Of a DNA stretch of 64,000 nt, positions 11,222 through 58,211 are shown one piece after another. The notes under the pieces were generated by a model that did not search any database, was not told the DNA's origin, and saw only the letters and a list, made by a program, of their open reading frames with translations. Positions within the stretch are counted from its first letter, which is position 1, and the number at the start of each line of letters is the position of its first letter. The stretch is taken from contig NZ_CP017770.1 of NCBI RefSeq assembly GCF_001857945.1, forward strand, positions 496,001 to 560,000. The letters run 5' to 3'. Source of the DNA: Paenibacillus crassostreae. GTDB lineage: Bacteria > Bacillota > Bacilli > Paenibacillales > Paenibacillaceae. The position numbers and the translations under genes are program-made.

Positions 11222-11252
11222 TTATTGAACTAACGGGTCCCGTTAGCACAAC
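11222..11252. repeat. CCCGTTAGC repeat, copy A
   Basis: Single box starting TTATTGAACTAACGGG and followed by TCCCGTTAGCACAACG. Its centre CTAACGGG-T-CCCGTTAG is a perfect 8+8 palindrome. It ends 2 bp from the stop codon of the lipoprotein gene to its right. Confidence 0.8.
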
Positions 11253-11254
11253 GC

Positions 11255-11650
11255 TCATTTCACCTCAACAGTAATGCTCTCGAACATGTTGGCTTCTAAA
11301 TAAGCATCCAGTTGCCAAACCCCAGGCTGGGGCAGTTCCATGGAAGATGGTACATGACCATCCGCGCCATTATTAGGACCTCCAATAGGAGTAGGATTAT
11401 CCAGCGGTAAAGGGTTAATTTTTTTGCCAGTTTTCGTGTTGACAGCTTCAACTCTAAAGTTCCCGCTCAATTCTTCTTTTGTTCCCCAAAAATGCCACAT
11501 GTGCTTGTTTGGCTTCCCTGCAACGAATTCGGGTCCTAAAATTCCGATCCTCCCTTCGATTCCCTGCATCTCGAGTCCCTCGCTTGTGAAAGTCGGACTG
11601 ATTTCCACGGAGGTATTCGCAGCTTTAGTACAACCGCTGAAAATCAACAA
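11255..11650 (-). CDS. DUF4871-like lipoprotein, 5' end truncated by repeat
   Basis: The readable frame gives about 131 residues with KKHMWHFWG-type region (NKHMWHFWGTKEELSG), KTGKKINPLP and GGPNNGADGHVPSSM, the pattern of YhfM/DUF4871 lipoproteins. The hydrophobic signal stretch ILIAVLLIFSGC is present, but no ATG or GTG precedes it. The frame is closed by a TAA in the sequence of repeat copy B, 20-30 bp upstream, and only TTG codons at 11650/11647 could start it inside the signal peptide. The 5' end has therefore been lost or replaced. Outer-surface anchoring is expected only if some start is used. Function of the family is unknown. Confidence 0.65.
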   Translation of the reverse strand: MLIFSGCTKAANTSVEISPTFTSEGLEMQGIEGRIGILGPEFVAGKPNKHMWHFWGTKEELSGNFRVEAVNTKTGKKINPLPLDNPTPIGGPNNGADGHVPSSMELPQPGVWQLDAYLEANMFESITVEVK

Positions 11651-11669
11651 AACAGCTATTAATATACAA

Positions 11670-11690
11670 GTGTCCCGTTAGCGTAACGAA
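11670..11690. repeat. CCCGTTAGC repeat, copy B
   Basis: Box GTGTCCCGTTAGCGTAACGA lies immediately 5' of the truncated lipoprotein signal peptide. Its left half is degenerate. It supplies the in-frame TAA that closes the lipoprotein frame. Confidence 0.75.
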
Positions 11691-11764
11691 CAAGCATGTC
11701 ATTCTGGTTAAGCTCATCCTCTGAATAAGATAATGAACGTATCTAATAATGCTTTTGAATACAC

Positions 11765-12223
11765 TTATATCCACGTTTGAAACGATTTATTGACCATCTT
11801 TACATTGTTCATTTTTGCCCAACTCTTTAAATCCGAGATACCTCTATCCTCATCCTTTGAATATCTAAATGCCATACCCAATGGGACGATCTTCCTCCTG
11901 TAAGGTAATATCCCAATAACAGGCCTAAAGTACCCCTTAGTCATTATCACTTTAATATCCCTTGAATTAATTATATTTCCATTTAATATGATTTGCTCAT
12001 TGGATAGGCATAACTCCGTTGGTTTCTTAAAAAATGTTCTGAACAATGCGAGTAACAGTACAACTAAACCCATAAGAACCGCTGTTATCGAAGCGTAGAA
12101 CACACCCCTCTGATCCCATAATCTCAATACAAGAATAGATTGACTCGATATAATAGCTATCATGCCTATAATGGTTCCAATCCTTGGTGGACTCTTAACT
12201 GGATGCTTTATTTCCCTCAACAT
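11765..12223 (-). CDS. Small membrane protein with PH-like C-terminus
   Basis: A 152-residue protein with two N-terminal membrane spans (about residues 16-35 and 42-62), then a soluble part. The stretch ELCLSNEQIILNGNIINSRDI followed by an alternating beta pattern resembles bacterial PH (bPH) domains found after two spans in YdbS-like proteins; the match is tentative. The ATG at 12223 is preceded by a run of 14 G residues two bases upstream, which would serve as an unusual ribosome binding site. Repeat copies lie on both sides (B and C). Function unknown. Confidence 0.65.
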   Translation of the reverse strand: MLREIKHPVKSPPRIGTIIGMIAIISSQSILVLRLWDQRGVFYASITAVLMGLVVLLLALFRTFFKKPTELCLSNEQIILNGNIINSRDIKVIMTKGYFRPVIGILPYRRKIVPLGMAFRYSKDEDRGISDLKSWAKMNNVKMVNKSFQTWI

Positions 12224-12225
12224 TG

Positions 12226-12239
12226 CCCCCCCCCCCCCC
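12226..12239 (-). promoter_or_regulatory. G14 homopolymer as ribosome binding site
   Basis: Fourteen consecutive G residues (C on the plus strand) end two bases before the ATG of the PH-like membrane protein and replace a normal GGAGG. Slippage in such a tract could vary expression. A sequencing or assembly length error is also possible. Confidence 0.5.
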
Positions 12240-12272
12240 GTTCAAATCCCTTTCCTTAGAATACCACATATT

Positions 12273-12371
12273 GGAACTATTCTGCTCGTTAGCGTAATGA
12301 AAAAGCAGCCGATCGTCTGACCGGCTGCCATCGTGTCTTGATTGAACTATCGTACCCCGTTAGCACAATAA
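12273..12371. repeat. CCCGTTAGC repeat, copy C (box-hairpin-box)
   Basis: Left box GGAACTATTCTGCTCGTTAG (then CGTAATGA), hairpin GCAGCCG/CGGCTGC (12305-12311, 12322-12328), right box ATTGAACTATCGTACCCCGT (then TAGCACAAT). The right box ends 1-2 bp from the stop codon of the next gene. Confidence 0.8.
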
Positions 12372-12372
12372 T

Positions 12373-12822
12373 TTAGGGGTTTATATTATTCTCACTTACA
12401 TGTGTAACAACGAATCCTGAATCGTAATTGTGACGGAATGTGATTTGATAATTTTCTGTTTTCTTATCTACCACGTTATTAATAACTTCATGTACACTCG
12501 CTAAAACATCTAATTCGTAAAATCCCCCCTTAACCTCTCTCATATCGGTTACTTGAAATGGGTCAAAGTAATAAACATATTCTTTCCCTGTCTTTAAGTA
12601 TTTCTTTTCTTGGAGTACCCATAGTGTCCTCCGTTGCAATTCAGTTGTTAACATTCGTTCCAATCGTTCTTCCCTTGTTTGTGGGGATCCCCATAAAGCA
12701 ATCCATTTAATTGCATCTTTTCCTTTAGTCATTTCATCATGTGGTTGAGCAACACTTGCTGACTGAATGGATAGTATTGCCCCAATGGAAAGGACTATAG
12801 TAGATATCAATTTATGATTCAC
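12373..12822 (-). CDS. Secreted protein of unknown function
   Basis: A 149-residue protein with a clear signal peptide (NHKLISTIVLSIGAILSIQS, then ASVAQ), cleaved probably after ASVA. The mature part is about 125 residues, charged, ending in TFRHNYDSGFVVTHVSENN. GTG 12822 is preferred over GTG 12834, since GGGTGGGTGAT lies just upstream of the former. I do not recognise the family with confidence; the last third slightly recalls DUF3888 proteins. It lies exactly between repeat copies C and D. Confidence 0.65.
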   Translation of the reverse strand: MNHKLISTIVLSIGAILSIQSASVAQPHDEMTKGKDAIKWIALWGSPQTREERLERMLTTELQRRTLWVLQEKKYLKTGKEYVYYFDPFQVTDMREVKGGFYELDVLASVHEVINNVVDKKTENYQITFRHNYDSGFVVTHVSENNINP

Positions 12823-12884
12823 ATTATCACCCACCCATAGATTCCCTCATTTGGCTAGGTTTTATGTGCCAAGAAAATGTTCTG

Positions 12885-12966
12885 TTAAACTGCCCGTTAG
12901 CTGAACAAAGGGCTACCTCACGGCAGCCCTTTCATTATTGAACTATAGTGTCCCGTTAGCTGAACA
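12885..12966. repeat. CCCGTTAGC repeat, copy D (box-hairpin-box)
   Basis: The best-preserved copy. Left box TTAAACTGCCCGTTAGCTGA; hairpin AAAGGGCTACC/GGCAGCCCTTT (12907-12917, 12922-12932) with one A-C mismatch; right box ATTATTGAACTATAGTGTCC (then CGTTAGCTGAACA). The right box ends one base from the stop codon of the next lipoprotein gene. Confidence 0.85.
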
Positions 12967-12967
12967 A

Positions 12968-13432
12968 TTACATCTTCTTTGGCTCTTCCTTCGTGTTTTC
13001 CAGTTCAACAGACAGAAACCCTGACATCATCCCACCGTTTTTAGTGCTGAGGGCAACCCAGTGAGTGCCCGTTGCCCAAGGTTGCGTTCCATTTACAGCC
13101 TTTTGAGCACCAGGAGCCACCTCGAAGAACATTTTTTCCGTTCCCGTAATTGTGTCTTGAGTAACTCGGACCCTCAGGGTTTCAGATGATGTATTGTGAA
13201 CCCGAACTTTTACCCATCCGAAATGGGCTGGAATATTTAAATCTTTATTAAAACTAGGCCCAGAAATTGGAAAATGAACAATCTCGTTATCATCCACGAT
13301 AAATGCAGCGGACTCACCTGAAGGAAGTAACTCAGGAGCATCTTGAATAACATTTTTTTGGGTAACTGTACTCGCGCAACCTGTGACAACAGTAATAAAT
13401 GCTAGGAGTAAAACAACCATTCGAAATTTCAT
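12968..13432 (-). CDS. Lipoprotein of unknown function
   Basis: A 154-residue lipoprotein with signal sequence MKFRMVVLLLAFITVVTGC; the lipobox is VTGC with Cys at 19. The mature part has beta-rich stretches (FGWVKVRVHNTSSETLRVRV) and a Gly-rich FEVAPGAQKAVNG region, resembling a small adhesive or Ig-like fold, but no family is recognised. It is anchored on the outer face of the membrane. Repeat D abuts its stop codon, and a degenerate copy (E) lies about 110 bp upstream. Confidence 0.75.
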   Translation of the reverse strand: MKFRMVVLLLAFITVVTGCASTVTQKNVIQDAPELLPSGESAAFIVDDNEIVHFPISGPSFNKDLNIPAHFGWVKVRVHNTSSETLRVRVTQDTITGTEKMFFEVAPGAQKAVNGTQPWATGTHWVALSTKNGGMMSGFLSVELENTKEEPKKM

Positions 13433-13544
13433 TTCATATTCCCCTTTTCTTAGATGCTACATTGGGGTTAGACGTTCTGTTTGTTCTATTGTTACGGTTT
13501 ACCTGTTTGGGAAATAGAGGGAACTCTCCTAGCTGTTAAGCAAT

Positions 13545-13584
13545 CCTGCCCCGTAGCCATACATGCAGCCCAAGAGCGGGCTGC
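13545..13584. repeat. CCCGTTAGC repeat, degenerate copy E
   Basis: CTGCCCCGTAGCCATACATG resembles the left box, followed directly by hairpin GCAGCCC/GGGCTGC (13565-13571, 13578-13584). No right box is recognisable. Confidence 0.45.
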
Positions 13585-13830
13585 ACCACAGAGGATGAAA
13601 ATGGATACCTCAGTCTATACTGTTTGTACGGCTGGCGAAGAAGGTCGATAAGCTATGGTGCCATAGAGCCCAACCGTTAGTCTGACTCCGACCACCACGG
13701 TGCATCACAGATTGTCGCACCCTATATGGGTAGCACTCATGGGAGATTAATCCTTTTTTGGTTGTTGCACCAGCCTTGCCTTTTTGTTTGTTATCTATGA
13801 TGTTTTTTGTGCTTAAAAGATCTAACAATC
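13585..13830. other. Non-coding GC-richer stretch, possible IS110-type end remnant
   Basis: No credible protein is encoded here. The text GGATACCTCAGTCTATACTG and, on the other strand, GACAATCTGTGATGCACCG with GGTTGGGCTCTATGGCACC resembles the structured non-coding ends of IS110-family elements, but no transposase frame is left. The identification is from memory of such ends and is weak. The rest of 13831-14066 shows only a short open frame (YAHSERLPMHGYPVLKK) that I cannot place. Confidence 0.25.
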
Positions 13831-40484: not shown

Positions 40485-40727
40485 TTAGTATAACGAATCT
40501 TCATGATACCCTTGGGTGTCTTCGTCAATTTTGTATTCTAAAATATCGCCGGGCTGACATTCTAAAGCTTTACAAATCGCCTCTAAAGTTGTTATTCGAA
40601 TCGCTTTTGCCTTTCCATTTTTCAATATAGAAATATTAGCCATCGTTATTCCAACCCGCTCAGAAAGTTCTGTAACACTCATTTTCCTTTTAGCTAGCAT
40701 GACATCAATATTGATTATAATGGACAT
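40485..40727 (-). CDS. YozG-like XRE-family regulator
   Basis: An 80-residue one-domain helix-turn-helix protein: IINIDVMLAKRKMSVTELSE then VGITMANISILKNGKAKAIR and LEAICKALECQPGDILEY. This is the compact HTH_26 type that regularly accompanies DUF2975 membrane proteins (YoaS/YozG in B. subtilis). ATG 40727 is used since GAGGTGA lies just before it. It starts 11 bp after the DUF2975 stop, same operon. Confidence 0.87.
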   Translation of the reverse strand: MSIIINIDVMLAKRKMSVTELSERVGITMANISILKNGKAKAIRITTLEAICKALECQPGDILEYKIDEDTQGYHEDSLY

Positions 40728-40737
40728 ATAATTCACC

Positions 40738-41229
40738 TCAGACTATTAAGTCATTTTCTGATTTTATATCGATGGCTTCTTTTAAAAGCCGTTGAAGAAC
40801 AGCCGCGAAGACTGCAATCACCAAGGGAGCAAAAATCATGACCATTCCGATTAGTATGAGACCCGGTGCGTCGTCTATCTCCGCCATGATATAGACGAGT
40901 GGTAGGGCTACCACATACAAGCCAGTGATAGTGAGGGCACAGTTTTTGATTTTCTTTAGAGCCTTTACAGATAATTCGGAGAAAGCTTGGTTCTTGTCAA
41001 TATAGCTTAAAAGCTTAAAAGATTGATACAAAGCGAAGTAAAATGGGATCGCCGAAACATACATAACCAGTAAAATGCCATATACCACAAAAGCTAAATC
41101 AAAACCTCTTTCTGCTGCTTCATGTGCTTCATTCGCTATCATAGGCAACAAAAATAGACACAAAGCAAGAACTGGAATGCCAATAAAAATTACAGCTATC
41201 TTTAAAAAGAGTGTTGAACTTCGTTTCAC
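40738..41229 (-). CDS. DUF2975 membrane protein (YoaS-like)
   Basis: A 163-residue membrane protein with four spans (about residues 8-30, 48-72, 99-120, 127-152). GTG 41229 is preferred, 6 bases after GAGGTG; a second GTG at 41238 lies inside that site. Always next to a small XRE regulator in related genomes; the pair's role is unknown, possibly membrane-stress related. Confidence 0.82.
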   Translation of the reverse strand: MKRSSTLFLKIAVIFIGIPVLALCLFLLPMIANEAHEAAERGFDLAFVVYGILLVMYVSAIPFYFALYQSFKLLSYIDKNQAFSELSVKALKKIKNCALTITGLYVVALPLVYIMAEIDDAPGLILIGMVMIFAPLVIAVFAAVLQRLLKEAIDIKSENDLIV

Positions 41230-41353
41230 AAAAAGCACCTCATTTATTTATTGTTAATTTGAATTTAACATATTATTTATCGTTTTACAATATATTTTGA
41301 TTGATATGGAATGCATTATGATTGTTTTGTAGATTCCCTTTCATTTTATACAA

Positions 41354-41388
41354 AGAAAAAAAGCATTCTTCTTTACAAAGAAATGCTC
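41354..41388 (-). terminator. Terminator after SF0329 gene
   Basis: AGCATTCTTCTTT pairs with AAAGAAATGCT with one bulge; the minus strand continues TTTTTTTCTTTG. It lies 64 bp after the SF0329-family stop. Confidence 0.7.
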
Positions 41389-41451
41389 TATTACTAAAAC
41401 TATTCAATTTGTGACTTGATCAAATAACCTGCCTGTTATCGTTATTTATTT

Positions 41452-43718: not shown

Positions 43719-44237
43719 ATGAGTAAATTTACTGTTGAACATAAAATCGATGCAGTGGATAGATACCAGAAGCAATTAGAGAGCGTGGATAAAATTGCTC
43801 GTTCAATAGGAGCGAATAAGGAAGTTGTACGTATGTGGATCAAACAATATGAATATCACGGATTAGTAGCTTTCGAAAAGTCCTATACTTCTTACACAAC
43901 ACAGTTTAAAATGGATGTACTTCATTATATGAACGAAAATGGGGCGTCCCCAAACGAAGCTGCAGTAATCTTTAATATTTCATCTCCTGCATTGATTCGA
44001 AAATGGAGAATACAGCTGAGTACTATCGGAATAGACGCTCTCTTTTCGAAGAAAAAGGGGCGTCCATCAATGATAAAAAAGCCAACGAAACAAGTAATAC
44101 AAGCATCCGTTGAAGGATCTGTTGAAGTACTTGAAGCGCGAATTAAACAACTTGAAATGGAGAACGAATATTTAAAAAAGTTGAATGCCTTAGTTCAGAA
44201 CAAAGAAAAATCACCAACCAAGACAAAGCGCAAGTAG
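43719..44237 (+). CDS. IS3-family OrfA (helix-turn-helix)
   Basis: A 172-residue DNA-binding transposase subunit with two helix-turn-helix units (ARSIGANKEVVRMWIKQYEY and EAAVIFNISSPALIRKWRIQ) and a C-terminal leucine-zipper-like helix (VEVLEARIKQLEMENEYLKK). The duplicated HTH is standard for the IS150 group. GGAGGTGCAG precedes the ATG. Frameshifting at A6G (44174-44180) fuses it to OrfB: the -1 frame from there runs open into OrfB with no stop. Confidence 0.9.
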   Translation: MSKFTVEHKIDAVDRYQKQLESVDKIARSIGANKEVVRMWIKQYEYHGLVAFEKSYTSYTTQFKMDVLHYMNENGASPNEAAVIFNISSPALIRKWRIQLSTIGIDALFSKKKGRPSMIKKPTKQVIQASVEGSVEVLEARIKQLEMENEYLKKLNALVQNKEKSPTKTKRK

Positions 44238-44263
44238 TCTATGAGTTAAGGCATAAATATCCG

Positions 44264-45073
44264 GTGAAGGCGCTCGTGAAGCTTGCTGGCATTCCACGTA
44301 GCACGTATTATGATTTTATAAAGAAAATGAACCGACCCGATCTTGATGCCGATTTAAAGGCTGAAATCGAATCAATTTACGATGAACATGAGGGCCGCTA
44401 TGGTTATCGTCGTATTCGTGATGAACTAGTGATTCGTGGGAAGAAAGTTAATCATAAGAAGGTTCAACGCATTATGAAAGAGCTTGGTTTAAAATGTCTT
44501 ATACGTATGAAAAAGTATAAATCGTATAAAGGTACAGTTGGTAAAATTGCGCCCAATCATTTAGATCGTCAGTTCAATACGGAAGCACCGAATGAAAAAT
44601 GGGTTACGGATATTACGGAGTTTAAATTATTCGGAGTAAAGCTGTATTTATCACCTGTATTAGATTTGTTTAACGGAGAAATTATAACATACACTATTGG
44701 CTCACGACCGACCTATTCACTTGTTTCAGAGATGTTAGCGAAGGCGTTAGTACGCCTACCAAAAGACCGCCAACTGCTCATGCACTCCGATCAGGGTTGG
44801 CATTATCAAATGAAGCAATATCGCCATGCGCTTCAAAAAAGAGGCGTCCTACAAAGTATGTCTCGTAAAGGAAACTGTTATGATAATTCCGTGATGGAGA
44901 ATTTCTTTGGCATTATGAAATCAGAGTTTCTCTACTTCAAAGAATTCGAAAGTGTAGAACACTTTAAACTAGAATTAGAAAAATATATAGAATACTATAA
45001 TACGAAACGGATTAAGGCAAAATTAAAAATGAGTCCGATACAATATCGAACTCATTTTGAGCAAGCAGCCTGA
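44264..45073 (+). CDS. IS3-family OrfB (DDE integrase)
   Basis: At least 269 residues from GTG 44264; as the frameshift product it extends upstream through ITNQDKAQVVYELRHKYPVK. It has the HTH_21 region (DEHEGRYGYRRIRDELVIRG) and rve catalytic core with DDE residues: Asp in WVTDITEF, Asp in MHSDQGWHYQ, Glu in NFFGIMKSEFLY. The transposase is the OrfAB fusion. Confidence 0.92.
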   Translation: MKALVKLAGIPRSTYYDFIKKMNRPDLDADLKAEIESIYDEHEGRYGYRRIRDELVIRGKKVNHKKVQRIMKELGLKCLIRMKKYKSYKGTVGKIAPNHLDRQFNTEAPNEKWVTDITEFKLFGVKLYLSPVLDLFNGEIITYTIGSRPTYSLVSEMLAKALVRLPKDRQLLMHSDQGWHYQMKQYRHALQKRGVLQSMSRKGNCYDNSVMENFFGIMKSEFLYFKEFESVEHFKLELEKYIEYYNTKRIKAKLKMSPIQYRTHFEQAA

Positions 45074-45084
45074 TGAAATAACCG

Positions 45085-45109
45085 TGTCTAACTTTTAGGG
45101 GTCACTTCA
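45085..45109 (-). repeat. IS right inverted repeat
   Basis: Right end of the element, TGTCTAACTTTTAGGGGTCA followed by CTTCA. The last CA borders the AGA duplication. Confidence 0.85.
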
Positions 45110-45494
45110 AGATATGCCTGTTTTATTACTAAATACAATATTGGTCTTATAATTTAATTTATCTGTGTCAAGTTCCGCAAGTATACTTGCTCTTAATGCA
45201 TCATCTTCAATAGAACCTTTTAATTGCCTCGGAACTTCCTTTACTATTACTTCATCCGAATGTTCCTTTTCTATAGGTGGGGTTTCGATGAAATCTTCGT
45301 TAGTTAACTTAGTACTTGTGGGTAAAAATTTAGTAGTGTTCAACTCTGATCCATTGTTGTTATCCTGAAGCGAAGTACAACCTGTTAAGGAAACAATTAC
45401 TATGATTACTCCCAATAAAAAAAGTCTTCTCATCCAAATCACCTCAATATTCAGACGAAGGAGATAGGTAAAATGTTCCAATATATTCAATCTA

Positions 45495-45600
45495 TTATTG
45501 AGTTATCGTGTTCTGTTAGCTTAATCGGCAATAAAATTAGAGGAACTCTATTGATGAGAGTTCCTCTGCTATCATTCTTTGTTAGCATAAAGACGGCAAC
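45495..45600. repeat. CCCGTTAGC repeat, copy F (box-hairpin-box)
   Basis: Left box TTATTGAGTTATCGTGTTCT (then GTTAGCTTAAT), hairpin AGAGGAACTCT/AGAGTTCCTCT (45539-45549, 45557-45567, perfect), then a degenerate right box CTTTGTTAGCATAAAG. The order relative to hairpin is as in copies C and D, but the hairpin sequence is unrelated. Confidence 0.7.
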
Positions 45601-48994: not shown

Positions 48995-49026
48995 TTATTG
49001 AACTATCGTGTCCCGTTAGCGTAATG
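48995..49026. repeat. CCCGTTAGC repeat, copy G
   Basis: Single well-conserved box TTATTGAACTATCGTGTCCC followed by GTTAGCGTAATG. It lies 36 bp from the stop of the Rrf2 gene. Confidence 0.82.
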
Positions 49027-49061
49027 TTCGGATTGCTATGATACAGAACGGACAGCCAAAA

Positions 49062-49553
49062 TCAGTCTCTTTCTTTTTGCAAATGATTATTACAGTCTTT
49101 ATTAGCCTTATCTAAAATAGATTGTATGGAGTGATTTTTAAAAAATAGGTGTAAGGCACTTTCAGCATTATCCATGACCTCTTTAATTCTACAAACACCT
49201 AGATTCTCTTCTTTACCCATTATTTGGACATTGCTTTCATCTGTCAATAACGTATGTTGTCTAGAATCTGAATTAGAACAATTAAACATTTGTTGTCTAC
49301 CTTCAGTAGACAAAATAACATCTAAAAATGTGATATGACTAGCTGAACGTGATAGTTCATATCCGCCTTTTACACCAGGGACAGCTCTAACAATCCCATC
49401 TTTCCGTAACTTAGTCATAATTTTTGACAAATAACTCTCCGATACGTCTAGCATATTGGATAATTCTTTAATACCTATTTTATATTCGCACTCTGAATTA
49501 GCCAAATGAACTAAGGCATGTAGTGCATAATCAGTATTTTTCGCAAATTGCAT
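49062..49553 (-). CDS. Rrf2-family regulator
   Basis: A 163-residue Rrf2 protein: MQFAKNTDYALHALVHLANS, GIKELSNMLDVSESYLSKIM then VPGVKGGYELSRSASHITFL. Only two or three cysteines are placed near the cluster region (FNCSNS and GVCRIKE), so Fe-S binding is uncertain. It is 50 bp downstream of a methyltransferase gene on the same strand and could regulate it. Both genes lie between repeat copies G and H. Confidence 0.87.
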   Translation of the reverse strand: MQFAKNTDYALHALVHLANSECEYKIGIKELSNMLDVSESYLSKIMTKLRKDGIVRAVPGVKGGYELSRSASHITFLDVILSTEGRQQMFNCSNSDSRQHTLLTDESNVQIMGKEENLGVCRIKEVMDNAESALHLFFKNHSIQSILDKANKDCNNHLQKERD

Positions 49554-51011: not shown

Positions 51012-51069
51012 TTTTCCCTCCCAATAACTCTCTTTATATTAACATAATTAACCAAATATCGATTCAATC

Positions 51070-51130
51070 TTATTGAAGTAAACTGCCAGTTAGTTCAATA
51101 AAAAGAACGCTCCCCGCCTTCGCTTGGGCT
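51070..51130. repeat. CCCGTTAGC repeat, copy I
   Basis: TTATTGAAGTAAACTGCCAG and TTAGTTCAATAA form a strikingly good dyad (TTATTGAA...AACTG/CAGTT...TTCAATAA), followed by a degenerate hairpin GCTCCCCGCC/GGGC. It shows the palindromic nature of the box. The rest of 51131-51308 is empty. Confidence 0.65.
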
Positions 51131-51851: not shown

Positions 51852-52112
51852 TATTATATCTCCTTTACTTCTTAGTTTCTAAATACGGGTTAATAAACTG
51901 TGTAAATTGTTAGCGCATCCAGTCTGAGAGTGTCCCTTCCTCGATATAATCGATAAATTCGTCACTATTGTTACGATGGAAAATCCCTTGTAAATGGATT
52001 TAGACATTGGCTAAATAGCACTTTAATTTCTTCTGATACTGAACCAACGGGAGCCAGTCTAACACTTTATTTTTCAGTCTAATACTTTATTTTCTTCTAA
52101 CATTAATCTGTT
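51852..52112. other. Intergenic, short gene-tail remnant
   Basis: A 26-codon minus-strand tail (IFHRNNSDEFIDYIEEGTLS, ending DWMR-stop, near 51915-51995) is probably the end of a deleted gene. A GTTAGCG core at 51910-51916 beside it may be an eroded repeat box. Nothing else was recognised. Confidence 0.4.
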
Positions 52113-52214
52113 TTACTGAACTAGCGTTCCCCGTTAACGCAACGAAGCTGCCACAGATCGATCTGCGGCAGCTTCGTAGTGTTGTTTATTGAGCTCTCAT
52201 CTCCTAAGTTGCTG
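52113..52214. repeat. CCCGTTAGC repeat, copy J (box-hairpin-box)
   Basis: Left box TTACTGAACTAGCGTTCCCC (then GTTAACGCAACGA); hairpin CGAAGCTGCC/GGCAGCTTCG (52143-52152, 52167-52176) with inner palindrome CAGATCGATCTG and one A-C mismatch; right box TTTATTGAGCTCTCATCTCC, decayed. It lies 26 bp from the RCC1 gene stop. Confidence 0.75.
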
Positions 52215-52239: not shown

Positions 52240-53136
52240 CTAATTTCCGGGCAGTTGGATGCCACGCCAGCCGCTTACATCGCATTGGCCATATTCATTA
52301 TCACCCACAGCAACCACCGTGCCGTCCGATTTAAGCCCTACGGTATGGGCACAACCGGCCGAAATCGCCACAATATCGCGCCAATCACTTACATTACATT
52401 GGCCATACTCATTCCAACCCACAGCTGCCATAGTACCGTCCGATTTAAGGCCGATGGTATGATTACTACCCACCGCTATCGCCACAATATCGCGCCAGCC
52501 GCTTACATCGCATTGGTCATGTTTATTCAAACCCACAGCCGTCACCGTACCGTCCGATTTAAGACCAATTGTATGAAGATAACCAGCCGCGACCTCCACA
52601 ATATCGCACCAGCCGCTTACATTGCATTGGCAATACCGATTATTACCCACAGCCGTCACCGTGCCGTCTAATTTAAGACCGATGGTATGCCAGTCACCCG
52701 CCACGACCTCCACAATATCATGCCAGCCGCTTACATTGCATTCACCTTCATTATTTCGTCCCACTGCTACCACCGTGCCATCCGATTTAAGCCCAATGGT
52801 ACGACGCCAACCCGCCGCAACCATTACAATATCGCGCCAGTCGTTTACATCGCATTGGTCATACTTATTCCAACCAACAGCCGCGACAGTTCTGTCAGAT
52901 TTAAGACCAATTGTATGTGCATTACCCGTGTTCGTCGCCATATGAACATTACCAGCCGCGACCGCCATAATATCACGCCAGCCGCTTACATTACATTGAC
53001 CATATTTATTATCACCCACAGCCGTCACCGTGCCGTCAGATTTAAGCCCCACGGTATGACGACGACCCGTCGCTATGGTATCTTTAGGCCACCGTTTCAC
53101 CTTTAACATCGCTTCTTTCGATGAAATGTAATCCAT
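52240..53136 (-). CDS. RCC1-repeat (beta-propeller-like) protein
   Basis: A 298-residue protein made almost wholly of seven RCC1-type repeats of 39 residues, each HTIGLKSDGTV-AVG-N-Y-QC then NVSGWRDIV-VAAG. Seven blades are the number of a closed RCC1 propeller. An extra 11-residue insert (NVHMATNTGNA) sits between repeats 1 and 2. The repeats are near-identical in DNA too, so recombination may vary their number. The function is unknown; such proteins bind other proteins or nucleosomes in eukaryotes. It sits between repeats J and K. Confidence 0.87.
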   Translation of the reverse strand: MDYISSKEAMLKVKRWPKDTIATGRRHTVGLKSDGTVTAVGDNKYGQCNVSGWRDIMAVAAGNVHMATNTGNAHTIGLKSDRTVAAVGWNKYDQCDVNDWRDIVMVAAGWRRTIGLKSDGTVVAVGRNNEGECNVSGWHDIVEVVAGDWHTIGLKLDGTVTAVGNNRYCQCNVSGWCDIVEVAAGYLHTIGLKSDGTVTAVGLNKHDQCDVSGWRDIVAIAVGSNHTIGLKSDGTMAAVGWNEYGQCNVSDWRDIVAISAGCAHTVGLKSDGTVVAVGDNEYGQCDVSGWRGIQLPGN

Positions 53137-53253
53137 GTTTTAGCTCCTTGTAAACAAGACCTTTTTTATATACGTTTCATCGTGGTCAACTACTTGCGAG
53201 AGTTGTACGTTCCATCAAGAAATATTACCACGAACTGTCGTTCTTGGGTTTTG

Positions 53254-53351
53254 TTAATCTGCCCGTTAGCGGAAAAGACCTGCCGATCCATTACTGTTGG
53301 CAAGTCTTCCCCTGATGTTTATTGAGCTATAGTATCCGTAAGCTTAACGAA
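53254..53351. repeat. CCCGTTAGC repeat, copy K (box-hairpin-box)
   Basis: Left box TTAATCTGCCCGTTAGCGGA; hairpin AAGACCTGCC/GGCAAGTCTT (53276-53285, 53300-53309) with one mismatch; right box TTTATTGAGCTATAGTATCC (then GTAAGCTTAACG). It lies between the RCC1 gene and the phosphotransferase fragment. Confidence 0.78.
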
Positions 53352-53738: not shown

Positions 53739-53878
53739 TCATAGTTTTGTCCTTGACACGAACTATCTCAACTAAATATACAATACCTTCCTTTTCATCT
53801 ATATACTACTACAAAATACGTGATACCTCCAGTGTCAGGTTGATTAATAAGAAAATATGTTTAGCTTTCGCTTTTCAT

Positions 53879-53911
53879 GAAACTAGCCTGCCTGTTAGCG
53901 CAATCTTACTG
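53879..53911. repeat. CCCGTTAGC repeat, copy L
   Basis: GAAACTAGCCTGCCTGTTAG followed by CGCAATCTTACTG, then a hairpin TTCTCTTC/GAGAAGA at about 53930-53951. Only one box is present. Confidence 0.6.
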
Positions 53912-58007: not shown

Positions 58008-58084
58008 CCTTCTCCGAGATTATTCTAATCTTGACTATGATTTAAAAGTGTATATAATACAAATTAATTGCATATGTTGAATGT

Positions 58085-58211
58085 TTTCTAGGGTTCCGCA
58101 ACAATAAATGTTGGTCTGGTCCGAGAGAAAACTCACAGCTATGCTGTGCCACGGAAGGATAAAAGCCTGGGAGATACTGTTTTACAGTTATCTCTTTGGC
58201 TTTTTTTGCTT
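58085..58211 (+). ncRNA. Guanidine-I (ykkC) riboswitch with terminator
   Basis: The conserved blocks are present in order: CTAGGGTTCCG, GGTCTGGTCCGAGAGAAAAC, a variable hairpin (CACAGCTATGCTGTG), CCACGG, and GGATAAAAGCCTGGGAGA. The last block overlaps a terminator, AAGCC...GGCTT with inner GAGATA/TATCTC stem and seven T at 58201-58207. Guanidine binding should block the terminator and turn on the SMR genes. The leader fits known biology of this class exactly. Confidence 0.93.

What the first reader, a model, noticed from the sequence alone, without database searches (positions are those of the whole stretch)
11222..13584. Cassette-like array of small secreted or membrane proteins separated by one palindromic repeat
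Copies A to E of a repeat with core CCCGTTAGC alternate with four one-gene units, all on the minus strand: lipoprotein (11255-11650), membrane protein (11765-12223), secreted protein (12373-12822), lipoprotein (12968-13432). The right box is 1-2 bp from the stop codons at 12373 and 12968, and copy A is 2 bp from the one at 11255. Each box is an imperfect palindrome of about 32 bp (ATTATTGAACTA...TTAGCTGAACAAT in copy D), and paired boxes flank a hairpin whose sequence differs each time. Units of 450-640 bp with same orientation and a structured site at the 3' end are the layout of an integron cassette array, which is not normal for this phylum. The box deviates from the attC core GTTRRRY by one base (GTTAGCT), and no integrase is in the window. 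The alternative is a REP/BIME or MITE that prefers 3' ends.
Basis: partly seen in the sequence, partly recalled or inferred. Interest (0 to 1): 0.85.

Follow-up and report, generated by a model that had tools for sequence, protein, structure and literature searches.

The report
Integron-like gene cassette arrays in Paenibacillus
Paenibacillus and relatives carry long rows of swappable single genes, cut and rejoined at one short repeated site and accompanied by their own recombination enzyme: apparently a separate version of the integron, the system that collects genes such as antibiotic-resistance genes in Gram-negative bacteria.

Summary
The array is real. The window holds 14 boxes scoring over 10, all on the + strand. 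They are of two kinds, M1 (8-nt spacer) and M2 (7-nt spacer), and alternate as M2-hairpin-M1-gene, with genes antiparallel to the boxes. A relative has 135 boxes in about 500 kb.

Whole gene units, including two of this window, recur singly in other species (76-96% identity) with different neighbours. Identity often switches inside the box core (CCC|GTTAG), at both M1 and M2. A 3.75-kb block between two M2 copies is absent from a near-identical region that keeps one M2.

A ~280-aa Xer-type tyrosine recombinase sits between an M2 and an M1. Around 80 such genes, 575 boxes are antiparallel to it and 2 parallel. It lacks integron-integrase hallmarks, the sites show no attC-like fold, and no attI was seen. 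Diverged versions occur on Bacillales plasmids.

Best reading: an integron-like cassette-shuffling system of Bacillota, distinct from true integrons and dif modules. The window's genome lacks the recombinase, so this array is probably an orphan. I found no earlier description in the open papers searched. That the recombinase does the cutting is inferred, not shown.

The parts
   Evidence: profile score 26.6
11255..11650 (-). lipoprotein gene of the DUF4871 family, 5'-truncated at the box
   Evidence: Pfam 2.6e-06; frame upstream of the lipobox closed at the box
11669..11691 (+). half box: right arm of M1 joined to the truncated gene; core G at 11676
   Evidence: score 18.7; edge of the membrane-protein unit in other species
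11765..12223 (-). cassette gene, membrane protein without Pfam match
   Evidence: unit 11675-12299 found in 14 other genomes at 76-93%
12263..12302 (+). box, M2 class
   Evidence: score 30.8
12304..12329 (-). terminator-like hairpin GGCAGCCGGTC-AGAC-GATCGGCTGCT followed by TTTT
12332..12373 (+). box, M1 class
   Evidence: score 33.2
12373..12834 (-). cassette gene, predicted secreted protein
   Evidence: unit 12335-12908 at 96% in G081, 92% in G008, 78% in G007
12873..12910 (+). box, M2 class
   Evidence: score 25.9
12907..12932 (-). hairpin AAAGGGCTGCC-GTGA-GGTAGCCCTTT between M2 and M1
12929..12968 (+). box, M1 class, abutting the stop codon at 12968
   Evidence: score 35.5
12968..13432 (-). 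cassette gene, lipoprotein
   Evidence: score 7.6
41419..41438 (+). weak M2; edge of a unit (40494-41438) shared with G010 at about 80%
   Evidence: score 8.8; alignments
45493..45530 (+). box, M1 class, next to lipoprotein ORF 45107-45490
   Evidence: score 22.7
48995..49027 (+). box, M1 class, downstream of ORF 49062-49553
   Evidence: score 36.0
51067..51103 (+). box, M2 class
   Evidence: score 23.1
52109..52146 (+). box, M1 class, followed by a long hairpin
   Evidence: score 29.3; inverted repeat
52240..53136 (-). cassette gene, protein of repeated 38-residue units (RCC1-like by eye)
   Evidence: 52833-53269 is 94% identical to G010, ending in M2
53253..53278 (+). box, M2 class
   Evidence: score 19.1
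53314..53350 (+). box, M1 class
   Evidence: score 13.1
53872..53904 (+). box, M2 class
   Evidence: score 20.5

Best explanation
It is part of an integron-like cassette system of Bacillota. Each box is a recombination core site: two imperfect inverted arms of about 11 bp around a 7-nt (M2) or 8-nt (M1) spacer. Read along the box strand the layout is M2, terminator-like hairpin, M1, then a gene in reverse. SHOWN by sequence comparison: gene units and hairpin units have been exchanged as blocks, with crossovers confined to the core of M2 (11 nt, CTGCCCGTTAG) and of M1 (about C|GTTAG). INFERRED: a dedicated ~280-aa Xer-type tyrosine recombinase, encoded between an M2 and an M1 of the arrays, joins two boxes of the same kind. 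In direct orientation M2xM2 or M1xM1 would excise a circle of one or more gene-plus-hairpin cassettes, and the reverse would insert it elsewhere, building rows of genes of one polarity. Its translation is probably held low by a leader that hides the ribosome-binding site. The hairpin would end transcription after each gene, so cassettes would need their own promoters. The array in this window is probably an orphan, because its genome lacks the recombinase.
For: Regular grammar M2-hairpin-M1-gene in hundreds of kb of two relatives. 175 of 436 ends of repeated segments lie at boxes at equal offset, against 2.4% of the sequence being that near a box. Crossover interval of 11 nt in M2 from two directions; sharp M1 junctions; linkage lost across both cores. 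Block present or absent between two M2 copies with one M2 left. Units of the window found singly in other species with other neighbours and edges in the cores. Recombinase family between M2 and M1, 575 boxes antiparallel and 2 parallel to it in 80 loci, shuffled control 2 hits, catalytic residues invariant. Diverged boxes together with diverged recombinases on Bacillales plasmids. SD-hiding leader in 59 of 60.
Against: No activity observed. Many genomes with boxes, the window's own included, lack the recombinase, so host XerCD or past activity must be invoked there. M1 junctions are few. Some copies of a cassette are joined to DNA without a box, and one junction is an M2/M1 hybrid. Comparisons are between species or paralogous arrays, not strains of one species.
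Confidence: 0.8

Rival explanations
1. The host XerC/XerD pair, not the array-borne recombinase, acts on the boxes, much as in dif modules; the array-borne recombinase is a passenger or a helper.
For: Boxes persist in many genomes without the recombinase family, e.g. 37 in G007 and 26 in G000. Arms are Xer-like in size.
Against: In the genus, genomes with the recombinase have about three times more boxes (mean 33 against 10, counted). The gene is always tied to boxes in one orientation, and diverged recombinases go with diverged boxes.
Confidence: 0.1
2. A selfish integrative element, M2-recombinase-M1, and its short non-autonomous copies, M2-hairpin-M1, insert at box-like targets. Genes between two copies are carried along by accident, as in composite transposons.
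For: Recombinase and other M2-to-M1 pieces do move as units; the hairpin unit is dispersed alone; M2 left arm and M1 right arm are unlinked to the element.
Against: Gene units M1R-gene-M2L also move on their own between species. Genes abut the box at the stop codon and point one way (94 of 104), and rows reach about 500 kb, which looks like a use and not an accident. The two views overlap: this may be the system's origin.
Confidence: 0.08
3. A REP/BIME- or MITE-type repeat that prefers 3' ends, with homologous recombination between copies giving the shuffled look.
For: Boxes are short, palindromic and intergenic.
Against: Shared sequence is about 30 bp and degenerate, yet breakpoints concentrate in the core. 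Polarity is nearly absolute, genes travel with the boxes, and a site-specific recombinase is tied to them. RAYT genes were not searched for.
Confidence: 0.01
4. A true integron whose integrase and sites have diverged beyond recognition.
For: Two simple sites with 7- and 8-nt spacers per cassette, GTT core and cassette layout recall attC.
Against: Recombinase is nearer XerC/XerD/XerA than IntI and lacks the IntI-specific region; no attC-like fold; both boxes used; no attI seen.
Confidence: 0.01

Closest known systems
Integrons with attC gene cassettes (chromosomal superintegrons)
   Same: Long rows of small one-gene cassettes of one polarity; a site with two simple sites around a variable hairpin at the 3' end of each gene; tyrosine recombinase; crossover next to a GTT core.
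   Different: Xer-type recombinase without the IntI-specific region, encoded inside a site of the array; no attI or platform seen; both simple sites have recombined; no attC-like pairing of the two halves; a terminator-like hairpin after each gene; Bacillota.
dif modules / pdif sites of Acinetobacter (XerC/XerD)
   Same: Modules between Xer-like core sites with short spacers; two alternating kinds of site; single modules exchanged (PMC13141974).
   Different: All sites here are in direct orientation, modules there lie between inverted sites; spacers 7 and 8 nt, not 6; own recombinase; large chromosomal arrays.
XerC/XerD and archaeal XerA recombinases
   Same: Nearest protein families (1.6e-56 to 3e-55) and solved structures (1a0p, 4a8e).
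   Different: Below all three equivalog cut-offs, about 30% identical to the other Xer-like proteins of these genomes, multi-copy, mobile, tied to the boxes.
REP/BIME and RAYT
   Same: Palindromic intergenic repeats around hairpins.
   Different: Genes move with the boxes, breakpoints lie in a core, boxes are direct and polar; RAYT not examined.

Membership tests
Integron | IntI-type integrase (TIGR02249 above cut-off, IntI-specific additional region) | tested here: not met
   0 of 100 genus genomes over the cut-off; the array recombinase scores 95 bits against 265, in two stretches, and has about 21 residues where IntI4 2a3v and the profile have some 60
Integron | attC site: two simple sites that fold together as single strand (R, unpaired spacer, L, terminal structure) | tested here: not met
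   Two simple sites are present, but 32 of 40 predicted folds have no M2-M1 pair and a swapped control is no worse; prediction only
Integron | Crossover only at the outer R' box | tested here: not met
   Crossovers in the core of M2 and of M1
Integron | attI platform next to the integrase with cassette promoter | tested here: inconclusive
   Recombinase flanked by M1 and M2 like any array member; no separate attI recognised, not searched systematically
Integron | Array of one-gene cassettes of one polarity that move as units | tested here: met
dif modules | 28-bp XerCD site with 6-bp spacer, similar to chromosomal dif | tested here: not met
   Spacers of 7 and 8 nt; pdif sites quoted differ
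dif modules | Modules bounded by inversely oriented sites | tested here: not met
   Direct orientation, 575 to 2
dif modules | Recombination by host XerC/XerD | not testable with these tools
   needs an experiment
Tyrosine recombinase superfamily | R, K, H-x-x-R, H and Y catalytic residues | tested here: met
   invariant in the five-member alignment: R138, K162, H229-x-x-R232, H255, Y264; assignment by motif. Pfam PF00589 matches
REP/BIME with RAYT | RAYT (TnpA_REP) transposase associated with the repeat | not tested
   no RAYT search was made

The most novel reading that the evidence does not exclude
A third natural cassette-capture system, independent in origin from integrons and dif modules: paired heterospecific core sites that are both active, with a self-mobile Xer-type recombinase nested inside a site, spread over Bacillota chromosomes and plasmids.
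Probability: 0.6. Interest if true: 0.95.

Novelty: new variant of a known kind. Interest (0 to 1): 0.9.

Why it matters
Integrons are extremely rare in Firmicutes: a survey of RefSeq genomes found one complete integron and a few orphan attC clusters in the phylum (PMC9024848). A home-grown counterpart would show how these bacteria collect accessory genes, would open a large pool of unexplored cassette genes, and would allow a comparison of two systems that reached a similar design. Its hallmarks (boxes, recombinase) can be scanned for at once, and its activity is directly testable.

Tried and rejected
IntI search in the genus: only Xer-like background, which the control genomes share. IS91-type-associated tyrosine recombinases near a G000 box cluster: rejected as the actor, since they sit beside IS91-like transposase ORFs and not between boxes. 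attC-like folding of the whole site: no support. A B. subtilis-like dif pattern to place the terminus: no match in seven genomes. RNAalifold on the recombinase leaders gave nothing because the alignment was out of register; single-sequence folds were used instead. Homologues from Pseudalkalibacillus (53%) and G052 (47%): no boxes found with these profiles. Rfam: only a guanidine-I riboswitch. Literature: ten searches gave no description of this system; that library holds no preprints and few subscription papers. REP/MITE reading rejected on the breakpoint and polarity evidence; RAYT genes were not searched.

Full report
OBSERVATION. The core pattern exceeds every one of 100 shuffles. Further copies lie in the right part of the window, and all 14 boxes scoring above 10 are on the + strand. 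In the window's genome other clusters lie in the first 260 kb of the main contig.

ANATOMY. Boxes fall in two classes. M1: TtATTgAaCTATCGTTtCCCGTTAGcttAAt. M2: T..aACTAtcCTGCCCGTTAGCTTAATgA. Read along the box strand, M2 and M1 bracket a hairpin at a nearly fixed distance (73 sites, core to core 46-78 nt, mode 70); then a gene follows in reverse, then the next M2. Of 104 M1-to-M2 units (median 807 bp), the longest ORF runs antiparallel to the box in 94, and 54 of those 94 stop codons lie within 60 nt of the M1 core. The hairpins have a median of 13 pairs and about -20 kcal/mol, often with T residues at the 3' end in the cassette direction.

EXTENT. A sequence-only model of the box finds matches in 45 of 61 related genomes, in 36 of 37 genomes of the genus, with 97 matches in G010 and at least 119 in G005. 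In G010 nearly all lie on one strand within 2.83-3.31 Mb. Fetching 580 kb of G010 and about 470 kb of G005 gave 135 and 191 boxes of both kinds. Equal contig lengths identify the genus as Paenibacillus (G013 is P. rhizophilus, G003 P. albidus).

UNITS MOVE AND BREAK AT THE BOX. Among repeated segments of at least 200 bp and 80% identity, 175 of 436 ends lie at boxes at the same offset in both copies, whereas 2.4% of the sequence is within that distance of a box. Many of these pairs belong to one large family, so families were also counted. For pairs alike on one side of M2, identity drops at position -7 from one direction and at +5 from the other, which leaves the 11 nt CTGCCCGTTAG (7 and 10 families). 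Two M1 junctions show the same sharp switch near C|GTTAG, with identical gene sides and unrelated hairpin sides. Linkage is seen from the right arm of M2 to the left arm of M1 but not across either core (z 2.4 against about 0), so both cores have been crossover points. In G005 a 3.75-kb block between two M2 copies is missing from a near-identical region that keeps one M2; G010 has a second such case at lower identity. These are paralogous regions, and which state is older is not known.

THE WINDOW'S OWN CASSETTES. The membrane-protein unit (window 11675-12299) matches 14 other genomes at 76-93%, and the secreted-protein unit (12335-12908) matches G081 at 96%, G008 at 92% and G007 at 78%. Neighbours differ, and many matches start or stop within a few bases of the cores. 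Some matches end inside the unit, and three (L299, L304, L306) join its edge to DNA without a box. One junction (L305) fuses an M2 left arm to an M1 right arm, so exchange between the two classes, or loss of a hairpin unit, may happen. In an isolated G010 stretch two neighbouring units, DinB-like and NUDIX-like by sequence, likewise have separate distributions.

RECOMBINASE. A list of tyrosine recombinases led to a ~280-aa family inside arrays. In 61 genomes it is present, intact or broken, in 16, at about 67% identity or more. A scan of one genome for each of 84,980 species gave 461 relatives by loose criteria; the best 80 are nearly all Paenibacillus, with Cohnella, Brevibacillus and Pseudalkalibacillus. 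Around these 80, boxes scoring above 10 run 575 antiparallel and 2 parallel to the gene; an M1 lies upstream in 57, mostly 60-80 bp before the start, and an M2 downstream in 39; shuffled sequence gives 2 hits. So the gene sits between an M2 and an M1, where the hairpin normally is. In 59 of 60 distinct leaders the predicted fold pairs the SD motif with upstream bases. NCBIfam places the protein nearest XerC, XerD and XerA, below their cut-offs.

PLASMID RELATIVES. Recombinases of about 50% identity lie on large plasmids recorded as Peribacillus, Sporosarcina and 'Arthrobacter citreus'. In L346 and L347 the gene again lies between an M2-like and an M1-like box, beside rows of small genes on one strand, with diverged boxes; there the recombinase points the other way relative to those genes.

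REPLICATION. In six complete genomes the box strand changes about once near mid-genome: 21 of 21, 37 of 37, 18 of 18, 30 of 34, 8 of 9 and 6 of 8 boxes fit one switch (counted, with the switch point chosen to fit). If the contigs start at the origin, cassette genes lie on the leading strand. The terminus itself was not located.

COMPARISON. Integron attC sites hold two simple sites, are 57-142 nt long and recombine only at R' of the folded bottom strand (PMC2727003). Here both boxes have been used, and the predicted fold does not pair M1 with M2 more than a control. dif modules use XerCD sites with 6-bp spacers in alternating orientation (PMC13141974); here all sites are direct. The system works like an integron but fails its defining tests.

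LIMITS. No activity was observed. The link from recombinase to boxes rests on position, orientation and parallel divergence. Host XerCD remains possible, above all in genomes without the gene, such as the window's own. RAYT genes were not searched, no recombinase tree was built, and no strains of one species were compared.

Noticed in passing
window 13543-13650: A further repeat starts here (TGCCCCGTAGCCATACATGCAGCCC...), right at the degenerate M2, and is dispersed in many Paenibacillus genomes at 74-99%; another copy of its start is at window 60229.
   Followed up: no
L346, L347 (plasmids NZ_CP146247.1, CP053689.1): The same layout with diverged boxes and recombinase on large Bacillales plasmids; the record named Arthrobacter citreus carries it too and may be misnamed.
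   Followed up: partly
L215-L293, 66 nt before the recombinase start: Conserved leader whose predicted hairpin hides the ribosome-binding site in 59 of 60 distinct sequences.
   Followed up: partly
G010 array, e.g. 372.3-374.2 kb of the fetched stretch: Units of about 600 nt without an evident gene recur between M2 and M1 or in tandem, and one M2-flanked family has about 20 copies in G005 and G010.
   Followed up: partly
G000 C1 ends (1-40 kb and 4.587-4.627 Mb): The two ends of the main contig repeat each other, probably an uncircularised assembly, so boxes there are counted twice.
   Followed up: partly
window 43719-45073: Two ORFs that look like an IS3-type transposase pair lie next to the lipoprotein at 45107-45490, where a box would be expected.
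   Followed up: no
window 58077-58175: Guanidine-I riboswitch.
   Followed up: no
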